Positions 37,254 through 50,873 of a DNA stretch of 64,000 nt are shown here, piece by piece. The DNA is from Spirochaetota bacterium. GTDB lineage: Bacteria; Spirochaetota; Spirochaetia; Treponematales; UBA12059. The translations under genes and the position numbers were made by a program. The stretch spans positions 124,001 through 188,000 of the forward strand of contig JADFDI010000001.1 in assembly GCA_018262985.1 (NCBI GenBank), written 5' to 3'. The notes below the pieces were generated by a model, which worked only from the letters and a program-made list of their open reading frames with translations, did no database searches and was not told the DNA's origin. The number at the start of each line of letters is the position of its first letter. Position 1 is the stretch's first letter.

Positions 37254-37640
37254 ATGAAACCCGTGGACAAGCTCGCTTCCGACCTCGAACGCCGCGCCGA
37301 CGCCCTGATCGCCGAAGGCCGCGGCTCGGCTCCGTCCGTCGAGGACTTCCGGACTTTCTTCCTGCGCTCGGTGGCCGGCGTGCCGGCCGAGGTGCTCGAG
37401 GACGTCTTCGCCCGCTTCCTCGAACTGCGCGCCGGTCGCGGGAAGCGCCCGGCGGCCGAAGCGGGCAAATGGCTCGCCTCGATCGCCAGCGCCTTCCTCG
37501 GGGATTGGGACGGCTTCGCGTTCTCCGCCGACGAGTGGCGCGAGCTCGCGGACTTCGCGGCCCTCGGCTCCGGCGAGATGGACCTCGAGACGCTCAACTA
37601 CGTGATGGCCCTGGCCCTCGAGCACGGCGGGCTATCGTGA
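37254..37640 (+). CDS. Small conserved-looking protein of unknown function
   Basis: A 128-residue, acidic, mostly helical soluble protein, not recognised. It has no signal peptide, membrane helix or cysteine motif. The reading frame has strong coding character and overlaps the methyltransferase start as GTGA, so it is real and coupled to that enzyme. The -10 box TATACT (37242-37247) ends six bases before the ATG and there is no ribosome-binding site, so the transcript may be leaderless. Confidence 0.75.
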   Translation: MKPVDKLASDLERRADALIAEGRGSAPSVEDFRTFFLRSVAGVPAEVLEDVFARFLELRAGRGKRPAAEAGKWLASIASAFLGDWDGFAFSADEWRELADFAALGSGEMDLETLNYVMALALEHGGLS

Positions 37641-38464
37641 GGAAGCTCCGCCCGGCGCGCGAAGGCTCCCGCTCCGCGGACGCCCCGACGGGCGCTCCGG
37701 CCGGGGACGGACCCGGCGGACCGGGCGGCTCCTGGTTCGAGGAAGCGGAATTCTGGGAACGTTTCGCTCCCGTCATGTTCGGCGAAAAGCGCTGGGCCGA
37801 GGTGCCCGAGGTGGTGGACGCGGCGCTCGCCCTCTCCGCTTGCCCGGCGGGCGGCGCGGTGCTCGATGCGGCCTGCGGCCCCGGGCGCCATTCAGTGGAG
37901 CTGGCCCTGCGCGGCTACCGCGTCACCGGCGTCGACCTGACCCCTTCCTTCCTCGAGGCCGCCCGCGAATCCGCCGAGGACGAGGGCGTCGAGGTGGAGT
38001 GGGTGCGCGAGGACCTCCGCCGCTTCCGCCGTCCCGGCGCCTTCGACCTGGCGATCAACCTTTTCACCAGCTTCGGCTACTGCGACGAACGGGAGGAGGA
38101 CCTGCTCGTCCTCCGCAACATCCGCGAGAGCCTGAAGCCCGGCGGCGCGCTGATCGTCGAGACGATAGGCAAGGAGACCGCGGTCCGCGACTTCACCGAG
38201 AGCGAATGGTACGACCGCGACGGCTGGACCGTGCTGGCCGACTACGAGGTGGTCGGACCCTGGCGGGGCCTCCGGAACCGCTGGGTGCTCTACCGGGGAA
38301 CCGAGCGCTACGAGCGCAGCTTCGTCCAGCGGCTCTACGCGGGCACCGAGATGGAAGCCCTCCTCCTGGAGGCGGGCTTCTCCGGGGCCGCCATCTACGG
38401 TTCGCTGGAGGGCGCTCCCTACGACCTCGACGCCGGGAGCCTCGTGGCGCTCGCGCGGGTCTGA
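37637..38464 (+). CDS. Class I SAM-dependent methyltransferase
   Basis: A 275-residue enzyme. The SAM motif VLDAACGPGRHSVELA is near residue 75, followed by VTGVDLTPSFLEAAR (motif II region), EDLRRFRRPGAFDLAINLFT and LKPGGALIVET. The substrate is not evident; the pattern fits small-molecule methyltransferases. The N-terminal 35 residues are Gly/Pro-rich and poorly conserved in style, so a later start is possible. It is coupled by GTGA to the preceding unknown gene. Confidence 0.88.
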   Translation: MRKLRPAREGSRSADAPTGAPAGDGPGGPGGSWFEEAEFWERFAPVMFGEKRWAEVPEVVDAALALSACPAGGAVLDAACGPGRHSVELALRGYRVTGVDLTPSFLEAARESAEDEGVEVEWVREDLRRFRRPGAFDLAINLFTSFGYCDEREEDLLVLRNIRESLKPGGALIVETIGKETAVRDFTESEWYDRDGWTVLADYEVVGPWRGLRNRWVLYRGTERYERSFVQRLYAGTEMEALLLEAGFSGAAIYGSLEGAPYDLDAGSLVALARV

Positions 38465-38662: not shown

Positions 38663-39625
38663 ATGGCGGAAAAGCGCATAGGCATCAAGCTCGCCGACGG
38701 CGAGTTCTACCCGATCCTTCCCGAGAACCGTCCGGCCCGCAAAAGGCTCATAGTCACCACGGTGAAGGACGACCAGGCTTCGGTCCAGATCGACCTGTAC
38801 CGCGGCGAGGCGGCCCGCGTCACCGGCGACGACTACATCGGCAGCCTCCTCATCACCTCCATCGAACCGCGCCCCGCGGGAGAGCCCGACATCCGCCTCG
38901 ACGTCTCGCTCGACGCGGCGGGCGAGCTGGCCGCCACCGCCACCGACGAGTCCTCCGGCGTCTCGCGGAGCCTCAGGGTCTCGCTGGCCTCGCTGCCGCC
39001 CGAGGAGCACTTCGAGGTGCCCGACTTCGAGTTCGAGGAACTCGCCGAATCGCCGCTCTCCGGCGGCGGGGACGGCCCCGATTTCAACCCCTTCGAGGCG
39101 GAGACCGCGGCCCTGACCGGAGCGGGGCTCGAGGTCGAGGATGCCTCCCTGCTGGGCAAGGCCGAGCTGGCCCGAGGGGTCAAGGGCGGAAGGCGCTTCC
39201 CCTGGATCGTCATCCCGATCGCGCTCGCCGCGGTCGGACTCGTTGTGCTGGTCCTGTTCCTGCTCCGCGGCTGTCCCGCCGGAACGACGGTCGCTCCCGA
39301 GCCCGTGGCCGCGGTCGAAGCGAAGCCCGCCCCGGCGCCCGCTCCGGCGCCGGCCGAGGCGAAGCCCGCGACTCCCGCTCCCGCTCCGGTCGAGGCGAAG
39401 CCCGCCGCGACGCCCGCTCCCGCCCCGACGGCGCCGAAACCCGCCACGCCCGCCGCGAAGACCCCGGGCGTCAATTATAAAATCAGGTGGGGAGACACCC
39501 TCTGGGACCTCGCGTACGCCTACTACCGGAACCCGTGGCTCTATCCGAAGATCGCCGCGGCCAACTCGATCAAGAATCCGGACCTGATCATCTCCGGCAC
39601 CACCATCTGGATACCGGCGAAGTGA
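38663..39625 (+). CDS. Membrane protein joining an Hsp70 substrate-binding domain to LysM
   Basis: A 320-residue protein. Residues 1-115 match the beta-sandwich substrate-binding domain of DnaK (SVQIDLYRGE, IGSLLITSIEPRPAGEPDIR, LDAAGELAATATDESSG) with no nucleotide-binding domain before it. An acidic linker leads to a membrane helix (about 180-202, FPWIVIPIALAAVGLVVLVL). Then comes an Ala/Pro/Lys-rich repeat linker (210-265) and a LysM domain (268-320, YKIRWGDTLWDLAYAYY). The Hsp70-like part should be cytoplasmic and LysM periplasmic, bound to peptidoglycan. It may link cytoplasmic proteins to the wall. TATACT at 38599-38604 is a possible -10. Confidence 0.85.
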   Translation: MAEKRIGIKLADGEFYPILPENRPARKRLIVTTVKDDQASVQIDLYRGEAARVTGDDYIGSLLITSIEPRPAGEPDIRLDVSLDAAGELAATATDESSGVSRSLRVSLASLPPEEHFEVPDFEFEELAESPLSGGGDGPDFNPFEAETAALTGAGLEVEDASLLGKAELARGVKGGRRFPWIVIPIALAAVGLVVLVLFLLRGCPAGTTVAPEPVAAVEAKPAPAPAPAPAEAKPATPAPAPVEAKPAATPAPAPTAPKPATPAAKTPGVNYKIRWGDTLWDLAYAYYRNPWLYPKIAAANSIKNPDLIISGTTIWIPAK

Positions 39626-39680: not shown

Positions 39681-42047
39681 ATGAATCCGCATGCCGCGCG
39701 GCGCCCCGAGGGGCGCCGCCTCGCATCTTCGCGCCGCTTTCCCGGCGCCGCGCCCCTGGCCGTCCTCGCTCTCGCCGGCCTCCTTCTCGCGGCCTGCGGC
39801 GGGAACCGCGCCCTCGGCGTCGAGCTCGGCGAACTCCGCGCGCTGCTCGCGCGCGGCGAGGGCGGCCTCCTGCTCGAGGTGCCGGAAAAGCGCTACGCCG
39901 AACTCGAGCGGCTCGGTCCCGGCGCCTTCCATTACGCCGCCCGCCTGGCGCGGAAGCTCGGCTCGCCGGAGCGGGCGCTCGTCCTGCTTCGCCTCGCGTT
40001 CGAGCGCGAGACGGGCTTCCACCGGGCGCGCGCCCGCGTCCTCCTAGTCGACGCCCTCCTGGAGTCCGGCGACGACGGGGCGCTCGTCGCCTTCGTCGAC
40101 GGGCTGGACCGGGAAGCGGCCGCGGCCCGGCCCTCCGCCGACGGCGGAGCGGCGGATCCCCCGACCGCCGCTCCGCCGACCGCGAGGGAGCTCGAGGCGC
40201 GCGCGGCCGCCCTTTCGCGGCTCGGTCGCCATGAAGAGGCGCTCGCGGCGCTGGACGCCCTCTTCGCCGCCCGGCCGGAGCGCCGGAACGCGCCCGCCCT
40301 CCGCGTCCTCGAAGCCGCGTCGGCGTTCGCCCTCGAACCCGATTCCCCGAGGGGCGCGGAAGCGCTCCGCGCCGTCCTCGCTTCAAGCGCCGCCGGAAGG
40401 GACGAGCTCGACAAGGCGCGGGCTTTCTCGGCCGCCGTGCCCGAGGGGAGTCGGGGAGGGCTCGGGCCGGTCGAGCGCCTGGCGCTCGACGCGCGCGCGG
40501 CGGTCGCCGCGGGAGACCAAGGCGCCGCCGTCCGGCTCGCCGACGCGAACCTCGAGGCGCTGTCGGGCGCCCTGAGCCAGGACGCGGCGCTCTCCGACCT
40601 CGGCCGGGCCTTCCTCGCCCTGAAGGAGTTCACCCGCGGCGAAACGTTCTTCGAGCGGGTGGCGGCCTCCGCCGCGGCCGCCCCGACGGCTCCCGGCGCT
40701 GCGCGCGCCGCCTTCCTCGCGGCCTTCTACCGCGCGCGCATCCTCCGCGACCGCGAACGCCACGACGCGGCCGCCGCGGCTTTCGCCGAGGCGGCCGCCC
40801 TCGCCGAGCGGCCGGCGGACCGCGACGCCTGCCTTTGGTACCGCGTGGACGCCCTTTCGAAGCGTTCGCGCGCCGAGGCTTTGCGCGCCCTCGACGAGGC
40901 GACGCCTTCCCTGTCCGCGCCGGGGAATTTCACCGACCTCATGGACGGCCTGGTCCGCGCCGCGCTTATCGCGCGAGACGGCGCGGCCATCCGGACCCTG
41001 GCGACCGGCTTCGGCCTCCGCGCCCCGGCGGCGGCGCGGGCGCGGCTCTACTGGACCCTCGCCCGCGCCGCCGAGGCGGGCTTCGTCCCGGGCTTGGATA
41101 CCCCCGAGGCGCGACGCGCCTACGCCCTGCCGCTCTACCGGGAAGTCGCTTCCCTGAGCCGAGAGCACTACTACCTCGCCGCGTCCGCGGCGATGACGGG
41201 CGAGGCCGCCTGGCGCTTCGACCCCGACCCCTCCGCGCTTGAGGCCGCTCCGCCCGCCTCCGCCGACCCCGCGCCCGCGGCAGCCGCCGCTCCGGCGAGC
41301 GCGGAGGAGTCCTTCCCTGACGCGGCCGCGCTGGACTACCTCCTCGGCTTCGCCGACTGGGGACTCTCGGAGCTCCTCTACGCGGAACTCCGCGAGCTGC
41401 CGGGCTGGGAATCGCTTTCGCCCGCCGCCTATCGCGTCCTCGCGCAGCGCCTCGCGGCCGACGGGCTCTGGAGCGACTCGATGCTGGTCGCCTCGCGGCT
41501 CTGGTACCTGCCGGGCTTCGCGCCGGAGCGCAAGGATTGGGAGCTCCTCTGGCCGCGGCCCTGGCTGGACGCGATCAGCGCCGCCGCGGCCGCCGCCTCG
41601 GTGCCGGACCGCTTCCTCCTGGGCCTCGTCCGCTCGGAAAGCCATTTCCGCCCCGCGGTGGTCTCGAGCGCCGGCGCGATCGGGCTCGCCCAGTTCATGC
41701 CCGCCACCGCGGCCGAGGCCGCCAAGGCCCTGGGCATGACCGAGTACGACCTGACCCGTCCGGAGGACAACCTGCGCCTCGCGGGGCGGCACCTGGCCGG
41801 CCTGACGCGCGCCCTTTCCGGCGACCTGCCGCGCGTGGCGGCGGCCTACAACGCGGGGCTCTCGCGCCCGCGCGCCTGGGACCGCGAATTCGGCTTCCTG
41901 CCGGTCGAGCTCTGGATCGAGGCCATCCCCTTCCCGGAGACGCGGCAGTACGTCAAGAACGTGCTCGGCGCAGCCGCGCTGTACGGCGCCCTCCACGAAG
42001 GCCTCGACGGCCCGCTCGACCTGGTGGCGCTGCTGGGGATGGATTGA
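39681..42047 (+). CDS. Slt-type lytic transglycosylase lipoprotein
   Basis: A 788-residue protein. A signal sequence ends in the lipobox LLAAC (Cys near residue 38). Residues 50-600 are a helical superhelix of TPR-like repeats typical of Slt70. The C-terminal SLT domain (about 635-780) holds the catalytic Glu in LLGLVRSESHFRPAVVSSAG, then IGLAQFMPATA and VAAAYNAG, all diagnostic. It cleaves peptidoglycan glycan strands to 1,6-anhydro products in the periplasm. It follows the LysM protein by 55 bases, so the two may act together on the wall. Confidence 0.93.
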   Translation: MNPHAARRPEGRRLASSRRFPGAAPLAVLALAGLLLAACGGNRALGVELGELRALLARGEGGLLLEVPEKRYAELERLGPGAFHYAARLARKLGSPERALVLLRLAFERETGFHRARARVLLVDALLESGDDGALVAFVDGLDREAAAARPSADGGAADPPTAAPPTARELEARAAALSRLGRHEEALAALDALFAARPERRNAPALRVLEAASAFALEPDSPRGAEALRAVLASSAAGRDELDKARAFSAAVPEGSRGGLGPVERLALDARAAVAAGDQGAAVRLADANLEALSGALSQDAALSDLGRAFLALKEFTRGETFFERVAASAAAAPTAPGAARAAFLAAFYRARILRDRERHDAAAAAFAEAAALAERPADRDACLWYRVDALSKRSRAEALRALDEATPSLSAPGNFTDLMDGLVRAALIARDGAAIRTLATGFGLRAPAAARARLYWTLARAAEAGFVPGLDTPEARRAYALPLYREVASLSREHYYLAASAAMTGEAAWRFDPDPSALEAAPPASADPAPAAAAAPASAEESFPDAAALDYLLGFADWGLSELLYAELRELPGWESLSPAAYRVLAQRLAADGLWSDSMLVASRLWYLPGFAPERKDWELLWPRPWLDAISAAAAAASVPDRFLLGLVRSESHFRPAVVSSAGAIGLAQFMPATAAEAAKALGMTEYDLTRPEDNLRLAGRHLAGLTRALSGDLPRVAAAYNAGLSRPRAWDREFGFLPVELWIEAIPFPETRQYVKNVLGAAALYGALHEGLDGPLDLVALLGMD

Positions 42048-49430: not shown

Positions 49431-49610
49431 CGACGCGGAACCGGGGGAGGGGGCGGGGCGAGGGCCACGCGCCGCCCTCATGCGGCGGCGGCGCCGCTTC
49501 GCTCGGGGGCGGCACGCCGAGCCAGCTCCGCGCGCGGCCCGCCTTCGGAGGGCGGCAGCCCGCGCGTCCGGGCGTCGACGGAAGCGCGGGCGGTCGCGGG
49601 AGGGCCCGCC

Positions 49611-49639
49611 TTTCCCGGCGCGCGGAAGCCTGCTATCCT
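49611..49639 (+). promoter_or_regulatory. Promoter of the resolvase-like gene, leaderless type
   Basis: TTTCCC (49611-49616), 17-base spacer, TATCCT (49634-49639), then six bases to the ATG. Confidence 0.5.
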
Positions 49640-49645
49640 CGCCCC

Positions 49646-50176
49646 ATGCCGAGCCTCGACCCCGCCTCCTTCGCAGATCCGAACGCGATCACCCTCCTCG
49701 CCGCCGCCCTCCTCCTCGTCGCGCTCATCGCGGCGCTGGCCTTGTGGGCCGGCCTCGCGCTCGGCCGCCGCGCGGGCAGGCTCGAGGCGGAGCGGCTCTT
49801 CCGCGACCGGCTGGCCGCCGAGCGGGGCGACGCGGTCAAGCGGAGCCGCGCCGTGGTGGGCGGCCTCGCCCTCGAGCAGGTGGCGCCCTTCCTGCCGGGC
49901 TTCCCCGCGCGGCCCGACGAATGCCGCTTCGTCGGCAAGCCCGTGGACTTCGTGGCCTTTCCCGGCGCCGCCTCGGGCGAGGTGTCCGAGGTGGTCTTCG
50001 TCGAGGTGAAGTCCGGCGGCGCCCAGGCGAGCCGCGTCGAGCGCAGCCTCCGCGACGCGGTCAGGGCCGGCCGCGTGCGCTGGGTGGAATACCGCGCGCC
50101 CGACGCGCCGGTCGCGGCCGCCGCGCCCGGCGCCGGGGGGACGGGGGGCGGCGGCCGCCCGTCGCGCCGTGGCTAA
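49646..50176 (+). CDS. Holliday-junction-resolvase-related endonuclease-like protein
   Basis: A 176-residue protein with one N-terminal membrane helix (residues 15-40) and a charged helix, then a domain of the resolvase-related family: RSRAVVGGLALEQVAPFLPG near 70, RFVGKPVDFVAF near 97 and VVFVEVKSGGAQASRVERSL near 117. The D...E-V-K pattern resembles a PD-(D/E)XK nuclease core. The role is unknown. It overlaps the next gene by eight bases. Confidence 0.82.
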   Translation: MPSLDPASFADPNAITLLAAALLLVALIAALALWAGLALGRRAGRLEAERLFRDRLAAERGDAVKRSRAVVGGLALEQVAPFLPGFPARPDECRFVGKPVDFVAFPGAASGEVSEVVFVEVKSGGAQASRVERSLRDAVRAGRVRWVEYRAPDAPVAAAAPGAGGTGGGGRPSRRG

Positions 50177-50873
50177 CCGCTTCCTCGAGCGCCTCGGCTC
50201 GGGCGCGTCCGTGCCCGCGCTCAAGAAGCTCTGGCGGGCGGCCTCGCGCCGCGCCCACCCGGACTCGGGCGGCGAGGCTTCGACCTTCGTGGCCCTTAGG
50301 CGCGAGTACGAGGAGGCGCTCGCCTTCCTCGAGGCGGGCATCGAGCCCGCTTCGCGCCCGCCCGATCGTTCGGCGCCGGCCCCGTCCGCCGATCACCGTG
50401 CCGCCGGTCCGGATTCCCGGCCGGGTCCGGTGTCCCCTGAGCTCAAGGCGTTCCGCGATGCCATAGCCGCCCTCGGCGACGCGGCGCGCGTGGCGGGCTG
50501 CGATCCCTACCGCTGGAAGCCTCCGCGCGCTCTCGCGCTGGCCCTGGTCGAGGCCGCGCGCGGGTTCGATCCGTCCGCCGCCCTCGCGCTCTCGCGCCTC
50601 CTCGCCGCGCTCGCGGAATCCGGCGCGGAGTGGCGCCGCTACCCGGGCCTCATGAACCGCGCCTTCGCCTTCTACAAGGCCTGCGCCGCGCTGGCGGCGT
50701 GGAACCGCCGCGGCTGGAAGAGCGACGAGGACGCCTCTCGCACGCGGCTCGCGGACCTCGCCGAGCCGAGCGTCGCGCTCTTCGACTCGACGCGCTTTTC
50801 CGAGCTGCCCGCGCGCTTCGCGGCCGCCGCGTCCGCGCTCGAACGCGCCCTGCCGCCCGATCCGCGCGTCTGA
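50169..50873 (+). CDS. J-domain-like protein
   Basis: A 234-residue protein. Residues 15-55 look like a J domain (LKKLWRAASRRAHPDSGGEA, then FVALRREYEEALAFL) with the HPD tripeptide intact, so it could stimulate a DnaK. A Pro/Ala-rich linker (60-90) leads to a helical C-terminal domain (95-230) of unknown role. It starts at a GTG inside the end of the resolvase-like gene, so the two are coupled. Confidence 0.75.
   Translation: MANRFLERLGSGASVPALKKLWRAASRRAHPDSGGEASTFVALRREYEEALAFLEAGIEPASRPPDRSAPAPSADHRAAGPDSRPGPVSPELKAFRDAIAALGDAARVAGCDPYRWKPPRALALALVEAARGFDPSAALALSRLLAALAESGAEWRRYPGLMNRAFAFYKACAALAAWNRRGWKSDEDASRTRLADLAEPSVALFDSTRFSELPARFAAAASALERALPPDPRV

What the first reader, a model, noticed from the sequence alone, without database searches (positions are those of the whole stretch)
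38663..39625. Hsp70 substrate-binding domain without an ATPase domain, tied through the membrane to LysM
Residues 1-115 align by eye with the DnaK substrate-binding beta domain, including the SVQIDLYRGE, GEPDIRLDVSLDAAGEL and DESSG segments. A single membrane helix and an Ala/Pro/Lys linker then lead to a peptidoglycan-binding LysM domain. A cytoplasmic chaperone-like pocket anchored to the wall would be a new way to hold or place proteins at the cell envelope. The Slt gene next door suggests wall remodelling.
Basis: partly seen in the sequence, partly recalled or inferred. Interest (0 to 1): 0.65.

Follow-up and report, generated by a model that had tools for sequence, protein, structure and literature searches.

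The report
Orphan Hsp70 peptide-binding domain tethered to wall
Many spirochaetes carry a membrane protein that joins the peptide-gripping half-domain of the chaperone Hsp70, without its ATP motor or lid, across the inner membrane to a cell-wall-binding LysM domain, beside the gene for the flagellar wall-cutting enzyme, so it probably helps fit the internal flagella through the wall.

Summary
ORF 38663-39625 (320 aa) begins with a complete Hsp70 substrate-binding beta domain (HSP70 profile 394-501 only, E 4e-11; model Z about 14 to solved Hsp70 SBDs), with no ATPase domain, linker or lid. An acidic linker, one membrane helix, a Pro/Ala/Lys linker and LysM follow. It belongs to a family separated from true Hsp70s by one branch and found only in Spirochaetota (limited test), including the T. 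pallidum genome, where it is annotated only as 'LysM'. The next gene is of the family of BB0259, the flagellum-specific lytic transglycosylase; the pair is adjacent in 24 genomes. In the order, 119 of 125 FliF-positive genomes have the gene and 19 of 24 FliF-negative ones lack it; the other five have FliG or are poor assemblies. In a flagellum-less clade it is missing from between its two neighbours although slt stays (8 of 8 loci). Groove positions are more conserved than the rest; several Hsp70-invariant features outside it are lost. Best reading: an ATP-free, lidless peptide clamp on the cytoplasmic face, coupled to the flagellar wall-opening enzyme. Ligand unknown, peptide binding untested, LysM dispensable in several families.

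The parts
38663..39625 (+). Hsp70-SBDbeta / membrane helix / LysM protein, 320 aa
   Evidence: orthologs
38669..39001 (+). Hsp70 substrate-binding beta domain (residues 3-113), starting at the equivalent of DnaK residue ~396, so without the interdomain linker
   Evidence: PF00012 4e-11, PDB 3h0x 1.4e-13, models and fold matches, alignment
39002..39205 (+). acidic, disordered linker (inferred cytoplasmic) ending in a basic KGGRR motif; conserved PDF at its start
   Evidence: pLDDT under 50 for 113-181; net acid in nearly all relatives; P120 D121 F122 invariant in A1
39206..39262 (+). single membrane helix (residues 182-200)
   Evidence: hydropathy, helix 183-202 in model, positive-inside bias on the N side
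39278..39466 (+). Ala/Pro/Lys-rich linker (inferred periplasmic)
   Evidence: sequence; disordered in model
39470..39616 (+). LysM domain (residues 270-318)
   Evidence: PF01476 1.8e-8; strand-helix-helix-strand in model
39681..42047 (+). slt: lytic transglycosylase of the BB0259 flagellar-assembly family, with a probable lipobox (LLLAACGG, by eye)
   Evidence: NF047373 3.5e-112, score 376.5 against cut-off 234; SLT PF01464 1.9e-23; N terminus
37469..38464 (+). SAM-dependent methyltransferase, upstream neighbour in the window's family and one other family of the order; marks the empty site in flagellum-less genomes
   Evidence: PF13649 7e-19; L080-L082, L118-L122

Best explanation
It is a spirochaetal inner-membrane adaptor for flagellum assembly. 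SHOWN by sequence: an orphan Hsp70 substrate-binding beta domain, a single membrane helix and, in most members, a LysM domain; one family, separated from true Hsp70s by one branch; tight linkage to the flagellar lytic transglycosylase gene; presence following flagella. INFERRED: the beta domain lies in the cytoplasm and LysM binds the wall. INFERRED, less certain: with no ATPase and no lid the beta domain acts as a permanently open, fast-exchange peptide clamp that catches an extended segment of a cytoplasmic or polar flagellar partner. LysM (or, where LysM is lost, the membrane helix alone together with the co-encoded transglycosylase) then keeps that partner and the wall-opening enzyme in register, so that the hole in the peptidoglycan is made where a flagellum is being built.
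For: Fold and sequence. Family separated from the Hsp70s sampled by one branch, SH-aLRT 99.9 (short domain). Gene directly upstream of slt on the same strand in 24 genomes of many families, in several with overlapping ORFs (e.g. L055, L058, L059, L065). NF047373 is named for BB0259, whose catalytic activity is needed for the hook to pass the wall and which interacts with FlgJ (PMC8517470). Co-occurrence in 149 genomes of the order: 119 of 125 FliF-positive genomes carry it; 19 of 24 FliF-negative genomes lack it, and of the five exceptions three (the window's own genome among them, where fliG lies at a contig end) have FliG and two are 57-64% complete. In the flagellum-less clade slt is mostly kept but this gene is missing from between methyltransferase and slt in 8 of 8 loci read. 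A second flagellum-less family (f13) shows none of the three. Groove positions (DnaK 401, 403, 404, 426, 427, 429, 433, 435-438) average 1.06 bits of entropy against 2.07 elsewhere, permutation p 1e-4; the Gln433 equivalent is invariant in 45 of 45; E402, P419, Q442-G443 and N451, invariant in the Hsp70s sampled, are changed, and the linker is absent. A lidless DnaK SBD still binds peptide with fast exchange (koff 12.5 per s; PMC6017645).
Against: No ligand, localisation or mutant data. Groove strands are also core of the sandwich, so their conservation partly reflects folding. Phe426 is replaced by Leu/Val, and the Borrelia-like domain lacks the Gln433 equivalent, so peptide binding may not be universal. 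The flagellar linkage rests on about two independent co-losses (one clade, one family f13). Six flagellated genomes of the order lack the gene; one (G027) has only a degraded LysM remnant beside an intact slt. Families such as f26 and f31 are flagellated without it. ftsK and a TPR gene are neighbours too.
Confidence: 0.5

Rival explanations
1. The beta domain is only a folded protein-protein interaction or dimerisation module that lost peptide binding; it docks a fixed partner, for example the divergently encoded membrane TPR protein, by a new surface.
For: Family-specific conserved positions outside the groove (F15, Y16, P17, K27, R28, D44, Y46, R47); Phe426 to Leu/Val; degenerate groove in the Borrelia-like and f14 members; TPR gene adjacent in about half of the loci.
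Against: The Gln433 equivalent and other groove-lining positions are among the most conserved of the domain, including positions in loops or arch that are not core (A11, T32, Q38).
Confidence: 0.3
2. A general envelope or division tether (pole or septum) whose link with flagella is indirect.
For: ftsK lies downstream in many families and directly downstream in f10 genomes without the slt; f10 g69 genomes keep the gene with only weak flagellar hits.
Against: Flagellum-less genomes keep methyltransferase and slt but lack this gene; the co-encoded enzyme belongs to a flagellum-specific family (PMC8517470); the f10 genomes do have a FliG hit over cut-off.
Confidence: 0.15
3. Membrane-bound partner of the DnaK system: it competes with or hands over clients to DnaK at the membrane.
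For: Same fold and groove as DnaK.
Against: Linker and several Hsp70-invariant positions lost; no heat-shock gene among the recurrent neighbours; DnaK-level hits occur in nearly all genomes but this gene follows flagella.
Confidence: 0.05

Closest known systems
Hsp70/DnaK substrate-binding domain (C-terminal part of PF00012; PDB 3h0x, 1dkz, 6zhi, 4po2)
   Same: Eight-stranded beta sandwich, about 25-33% identity, groove positions kept
   Different: No nucleotide-binding domain, no interdomain linker, no helical lid; NTTIP loop two residues shorter and not conserved; membrane-anchored
BB0259 / LTase-Bb flagellar lytic transglycosylase (NF047373)
   Same: Its family is the co-directional downstream gene of this one in most loci, so probably the same pathway
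   Different: Different protein; kept in a flagellum-less clade that lacks the beta-domain protein
Treponema pallidum WP_010881491.1, 'Peptidoglycan-binding protein LysM', 49,513-50,445 (PMC6953169)
   Same: Same gene by coordinates (L055:7512-8444, about 49511-50443 of a 1.14 Mb genome): diverged beta domain, membrane helix, LysM, slt next
   Different: Beta domain too diverged for Pfam HSP70, which would explain why only LysM is named
Inner-membrane wall-binding tethers (MotB/Pal-type OmpA-like proteins; other membrane LysM proteins)
   Same: One membrane helix, flexible linker, wall-binding domain
   Different: The cytoplasmic part here is an Hsp70 peptide-binding domain; comparison from general knowledge, not tested

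Membership tests
Hsp70 chaperones | substrate-binding beta subdomain | tested here: met
Hsp70 chaperones | nucleotide-binding domain | tested here: not met
   the Pfam match covers profile positions 394-501 only and the ORF starts there; full-length Hsp70s lie elsewhere in the genome
Hsp70 chaperones | conserved hydrophobic interdomain linker (VLLLDV) | tested here: not met
   absent in the window protein and throughout the family alignment
Hsp70 chaperones | alpha-helical lid | tested here: not met
   no helix after residue 107 until the membrane helix; residues 113-181 low-confidence and acidic
Hsp70 chaperones | ATP-controlled peptide binding | not testable with these tools
   needs biochemistry; ATP control in cis is excluded by the missing NBD
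LysM domain proteins (PF01476) | LysM domain over Pfam cut-off | tested here: met
   34.6 bits against 20.9
LysM domain proteins (PF01476) | binding to peptidoglycan | not testable with these tools
   inferred from the family
BB0259-type flagellar lytic transglycosylase (neighbour gene) | NF047373 over curated cut-off | tested here: met
   376.5 bits against 234
BB0259-type flagellar lytic transglycosylase (neighbour gene) | catalytic activity required for flagellar wall passage | not testable with these tools
   shown for B. burgdorferi (PMC8517470)

The most novel reading that the evidence does not exclude
A family in which an Hsp70 peptide-binding domain, freed from ATP control and lid, still uses its canonical groove as a transmembrane adaptor: it reads a segment of a cytoplasmic flagellar protein and so tells the wall-opening enzyme where to cut.
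Probability: 0.25. Interest if true: 0.8.

Novelty: new variant of a known kind. Interest (0 to 1): 0.62.

Why it matters
How flagellar assembly is coordinated with cutting the wall is not well understood in spirochaetes, whose flagella lie inside the cell envelope. This family names a candidate conserved across much of the phylum, including the T. pallidum genome, where it is annotated only as a LysM protein. It would also be a natural case of an Hsp70 substrate-binding domain working without nucleotide control, useful for asking what the groove does on its own.

Tried and rejected
Chance match rejected (orthologs). Generic wall-remodelling Slt rejected in favour of the BB0259 family. Own genome lacking flagella: suggested by no FliF hit, rejected because FliG is present at a contig end. 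Slt presence as the marker of flagella: rejected, it is kept in the flagellum-less clade. LysM as a defining part: rejected. Literature: no paper found on BB0260, TP0042 or TP0043 (those locus tags were my guess from gene order) and none on an Hsp70-LysM protein; only open-licence papers were searched. VIA-align lists one ciliary chain (6u42_5F, Z 12.9) that I did not identify.

Full report
CHECK. ORF 38663-39625 encodes 320 aa. Pfam finds HSP70 over residues 7-111, matched only to profile positions 395-501, and LysM over 272-318; the first 148 residues alone score 4e-11. DnaK models agree and the nearest solved chain is the peptide-binding domain of yeast Kar2. Two AlphaFold2 models give eight strands at residues 5-107 with block pLDDT about 66-89. 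Foldseek and VIA-align place the domain on Hsp70 SBDs, rmsd mostly about 2.1-2.5 A, Z about 14.

WHAT IS MISSING. The ORF starts at the equivalent of DnaK residue ~396: no NBD, no linker, and after the beta domain no lid but an acidic low-confidence stretch. The genome has its own full-length DnaK and a second Hsp70 elsewhere.

FAMILY. In 149 genomes of the order nearly every flagellated one has a strong ortholog; a beta-domain profile reaches further families of the class and two families (f19, f32) outside it. Separately, one pattern scan of GTDB contigs returned only spirochaetes, but this reaches close relatives only. The family is separated from the Hsp70s sampled by one branch, SH-aLRT 99.9, on a short domain. 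One member sits at about 49,511-50,443 of a 1.14 Mb genome, the place where PMC6953169 lists T. pallidum WP_010881491.1, 'Peptidoglycan-binding protein LysM' (49,513-50,445); Pfam sees only LysM there.

ARCHITECTURE VARIES. Constant: beta domain, a linker that is acidic in most members (about 30 to over 300 aa), one membrane helix. LysM is present in most but was not found at the slt locus in L056 (Borrelia-like), L062, L064, L074, L083, L085, L087, L113, L114 and L127, nor in L084; a diverged beta-domain-like ORF with a membrane helix and no LysM also lies upstream of slt in L115, read by eye. Genomes G154 and G345 have a LysM-less copy at slt and a LysM copy elsewhere. K/R are more frequent on the N side of the helix in 34 of 40: N domain inside, LysM outside (inference).

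NEIGHBOURHOOD. The downstream gene belongs to NF047373 (3.5e-112), the family of BB0259, whose activity is needed for the flagellar hook to pass the wall and which interacts with FlgJ (PMC8517470). The beta-domain gene lies directly upstream, same strand, in 24 genomes, in several with overlapping ORFs. A divergent membrane TPR gene and a downstream ftsK recur.

FLAGELLA. FliF (PF08345) over the same 149 genomes: ortholog present in 119 of 125 FliF-positive genomes, absent in 19 of 24 FliF-negative ones. Of the five exceptions, G000, G105 and G133 have FliG; G074 and G086 are 64% and 57% complete. I called presence at E below about 2e-12; DnaK alone gives about 1e-7 to 1e-10. The eight of the 19 that I put on a tree form one clade. 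Most of the 19 keep slt over its cut-off; in the eight loci I read, methyltransferase is followed directly by slt and the beta-domain gene is missing. Family f13 shows no FliF, no slt and only a DnaK-level hit for this gene. So the gene was lost with flagella about twice, once while slt stayed. Exceptions: G066, G027, G031, G045, G099 and G119 are FliF-positive without it, and G027 has a LysM remnant upstream of slt. Flagellated families f26 and f31 lack both the gene and an over-cut-off slt, so it is not needed for flagella in general.

GROOVE. In 45 non-redundant members groove positions average 1.06 bits against 2.07 for the rest (p 1e-4 by permutation); in the Hsp70s sampled there is no significant contrast. 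The groove list is from general knowledge of DnaK. Q433 is invariant. Part of this is core packing: other hydrophobic core positions are about as conserved, so the argument rests mainly on loop positions such as Q433 and the arch position 404. Positions invariant in the Hsp70s here but changed in the family include E402 (now K/R), P419, Q442-G443 and N451; that some of these serve NBD docking is general knowledge, not tested. Lidless DnaK SBD binds peptide with fast exchange (PMC6017645), so binding without lid is feasible.

MECHANISM. I commit to an inner-membrane flagellar adaptor (0.5): clamp inside, wall or membrane anchor outside, coupled to the flagellar transglycosylase. Shown: architecture, linkage, co-occurrence. 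Inferred: topology. Least certain: that the groove binds a peptide, and which.

NOVELTY. Both domains are known; the combination, its conservation and its flagellar link were not found in the open literature searched. I call it a new variant of a known kind, not a member of the Hsp70 chaperones, since three defining features were tested and not met.

Noticed in passing
L058:8505-9884, L056:6516-7898 and equivalents: Divergently transcribed neighbour, found from Treponema-like to Borrelia-like genomes: in L058 an N-terminal membrane helix (by eye), TPR repeats and a C-terminal Mrr_cat-like (restriction-endonuclease) match, PF04471 5e-7; an odd combination.
   Followed up: partly
L056:9792-11252: Borrelia-like genome encodes a 486-aa Hsp70 with ATPase and beta domain but apparently no helical lid, about 3.4 kb from the degenerate beta-domain protein.
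   Followed up: partly
own genome C21:98782-100392 (L010), also L091-L094, L096: A second Hsp70 paralog distinct from DnaK occurs in several of these spirochaetes.
   Followed up: partly
L125 (G027), upstream of slt: Degraded LysM remnant beside an intact flagellar slt, apparently a pseudogene of this family in a flagellated genome.
   Followed up: partly
L063:2250-7115 and L072:9310-14133: The LysM-bearing copy in f6 genomes sits next to an about 1600-aa protein; the L063 one matches Big_7 repeats.
   Followed up: no
window 37469-38464: Methyltransferase relatives in the flagellum-less genomes align only from about residue 101, so the true start is probably downstream of the listed start, which overlaps the preceding ORF.
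   Followed up: no
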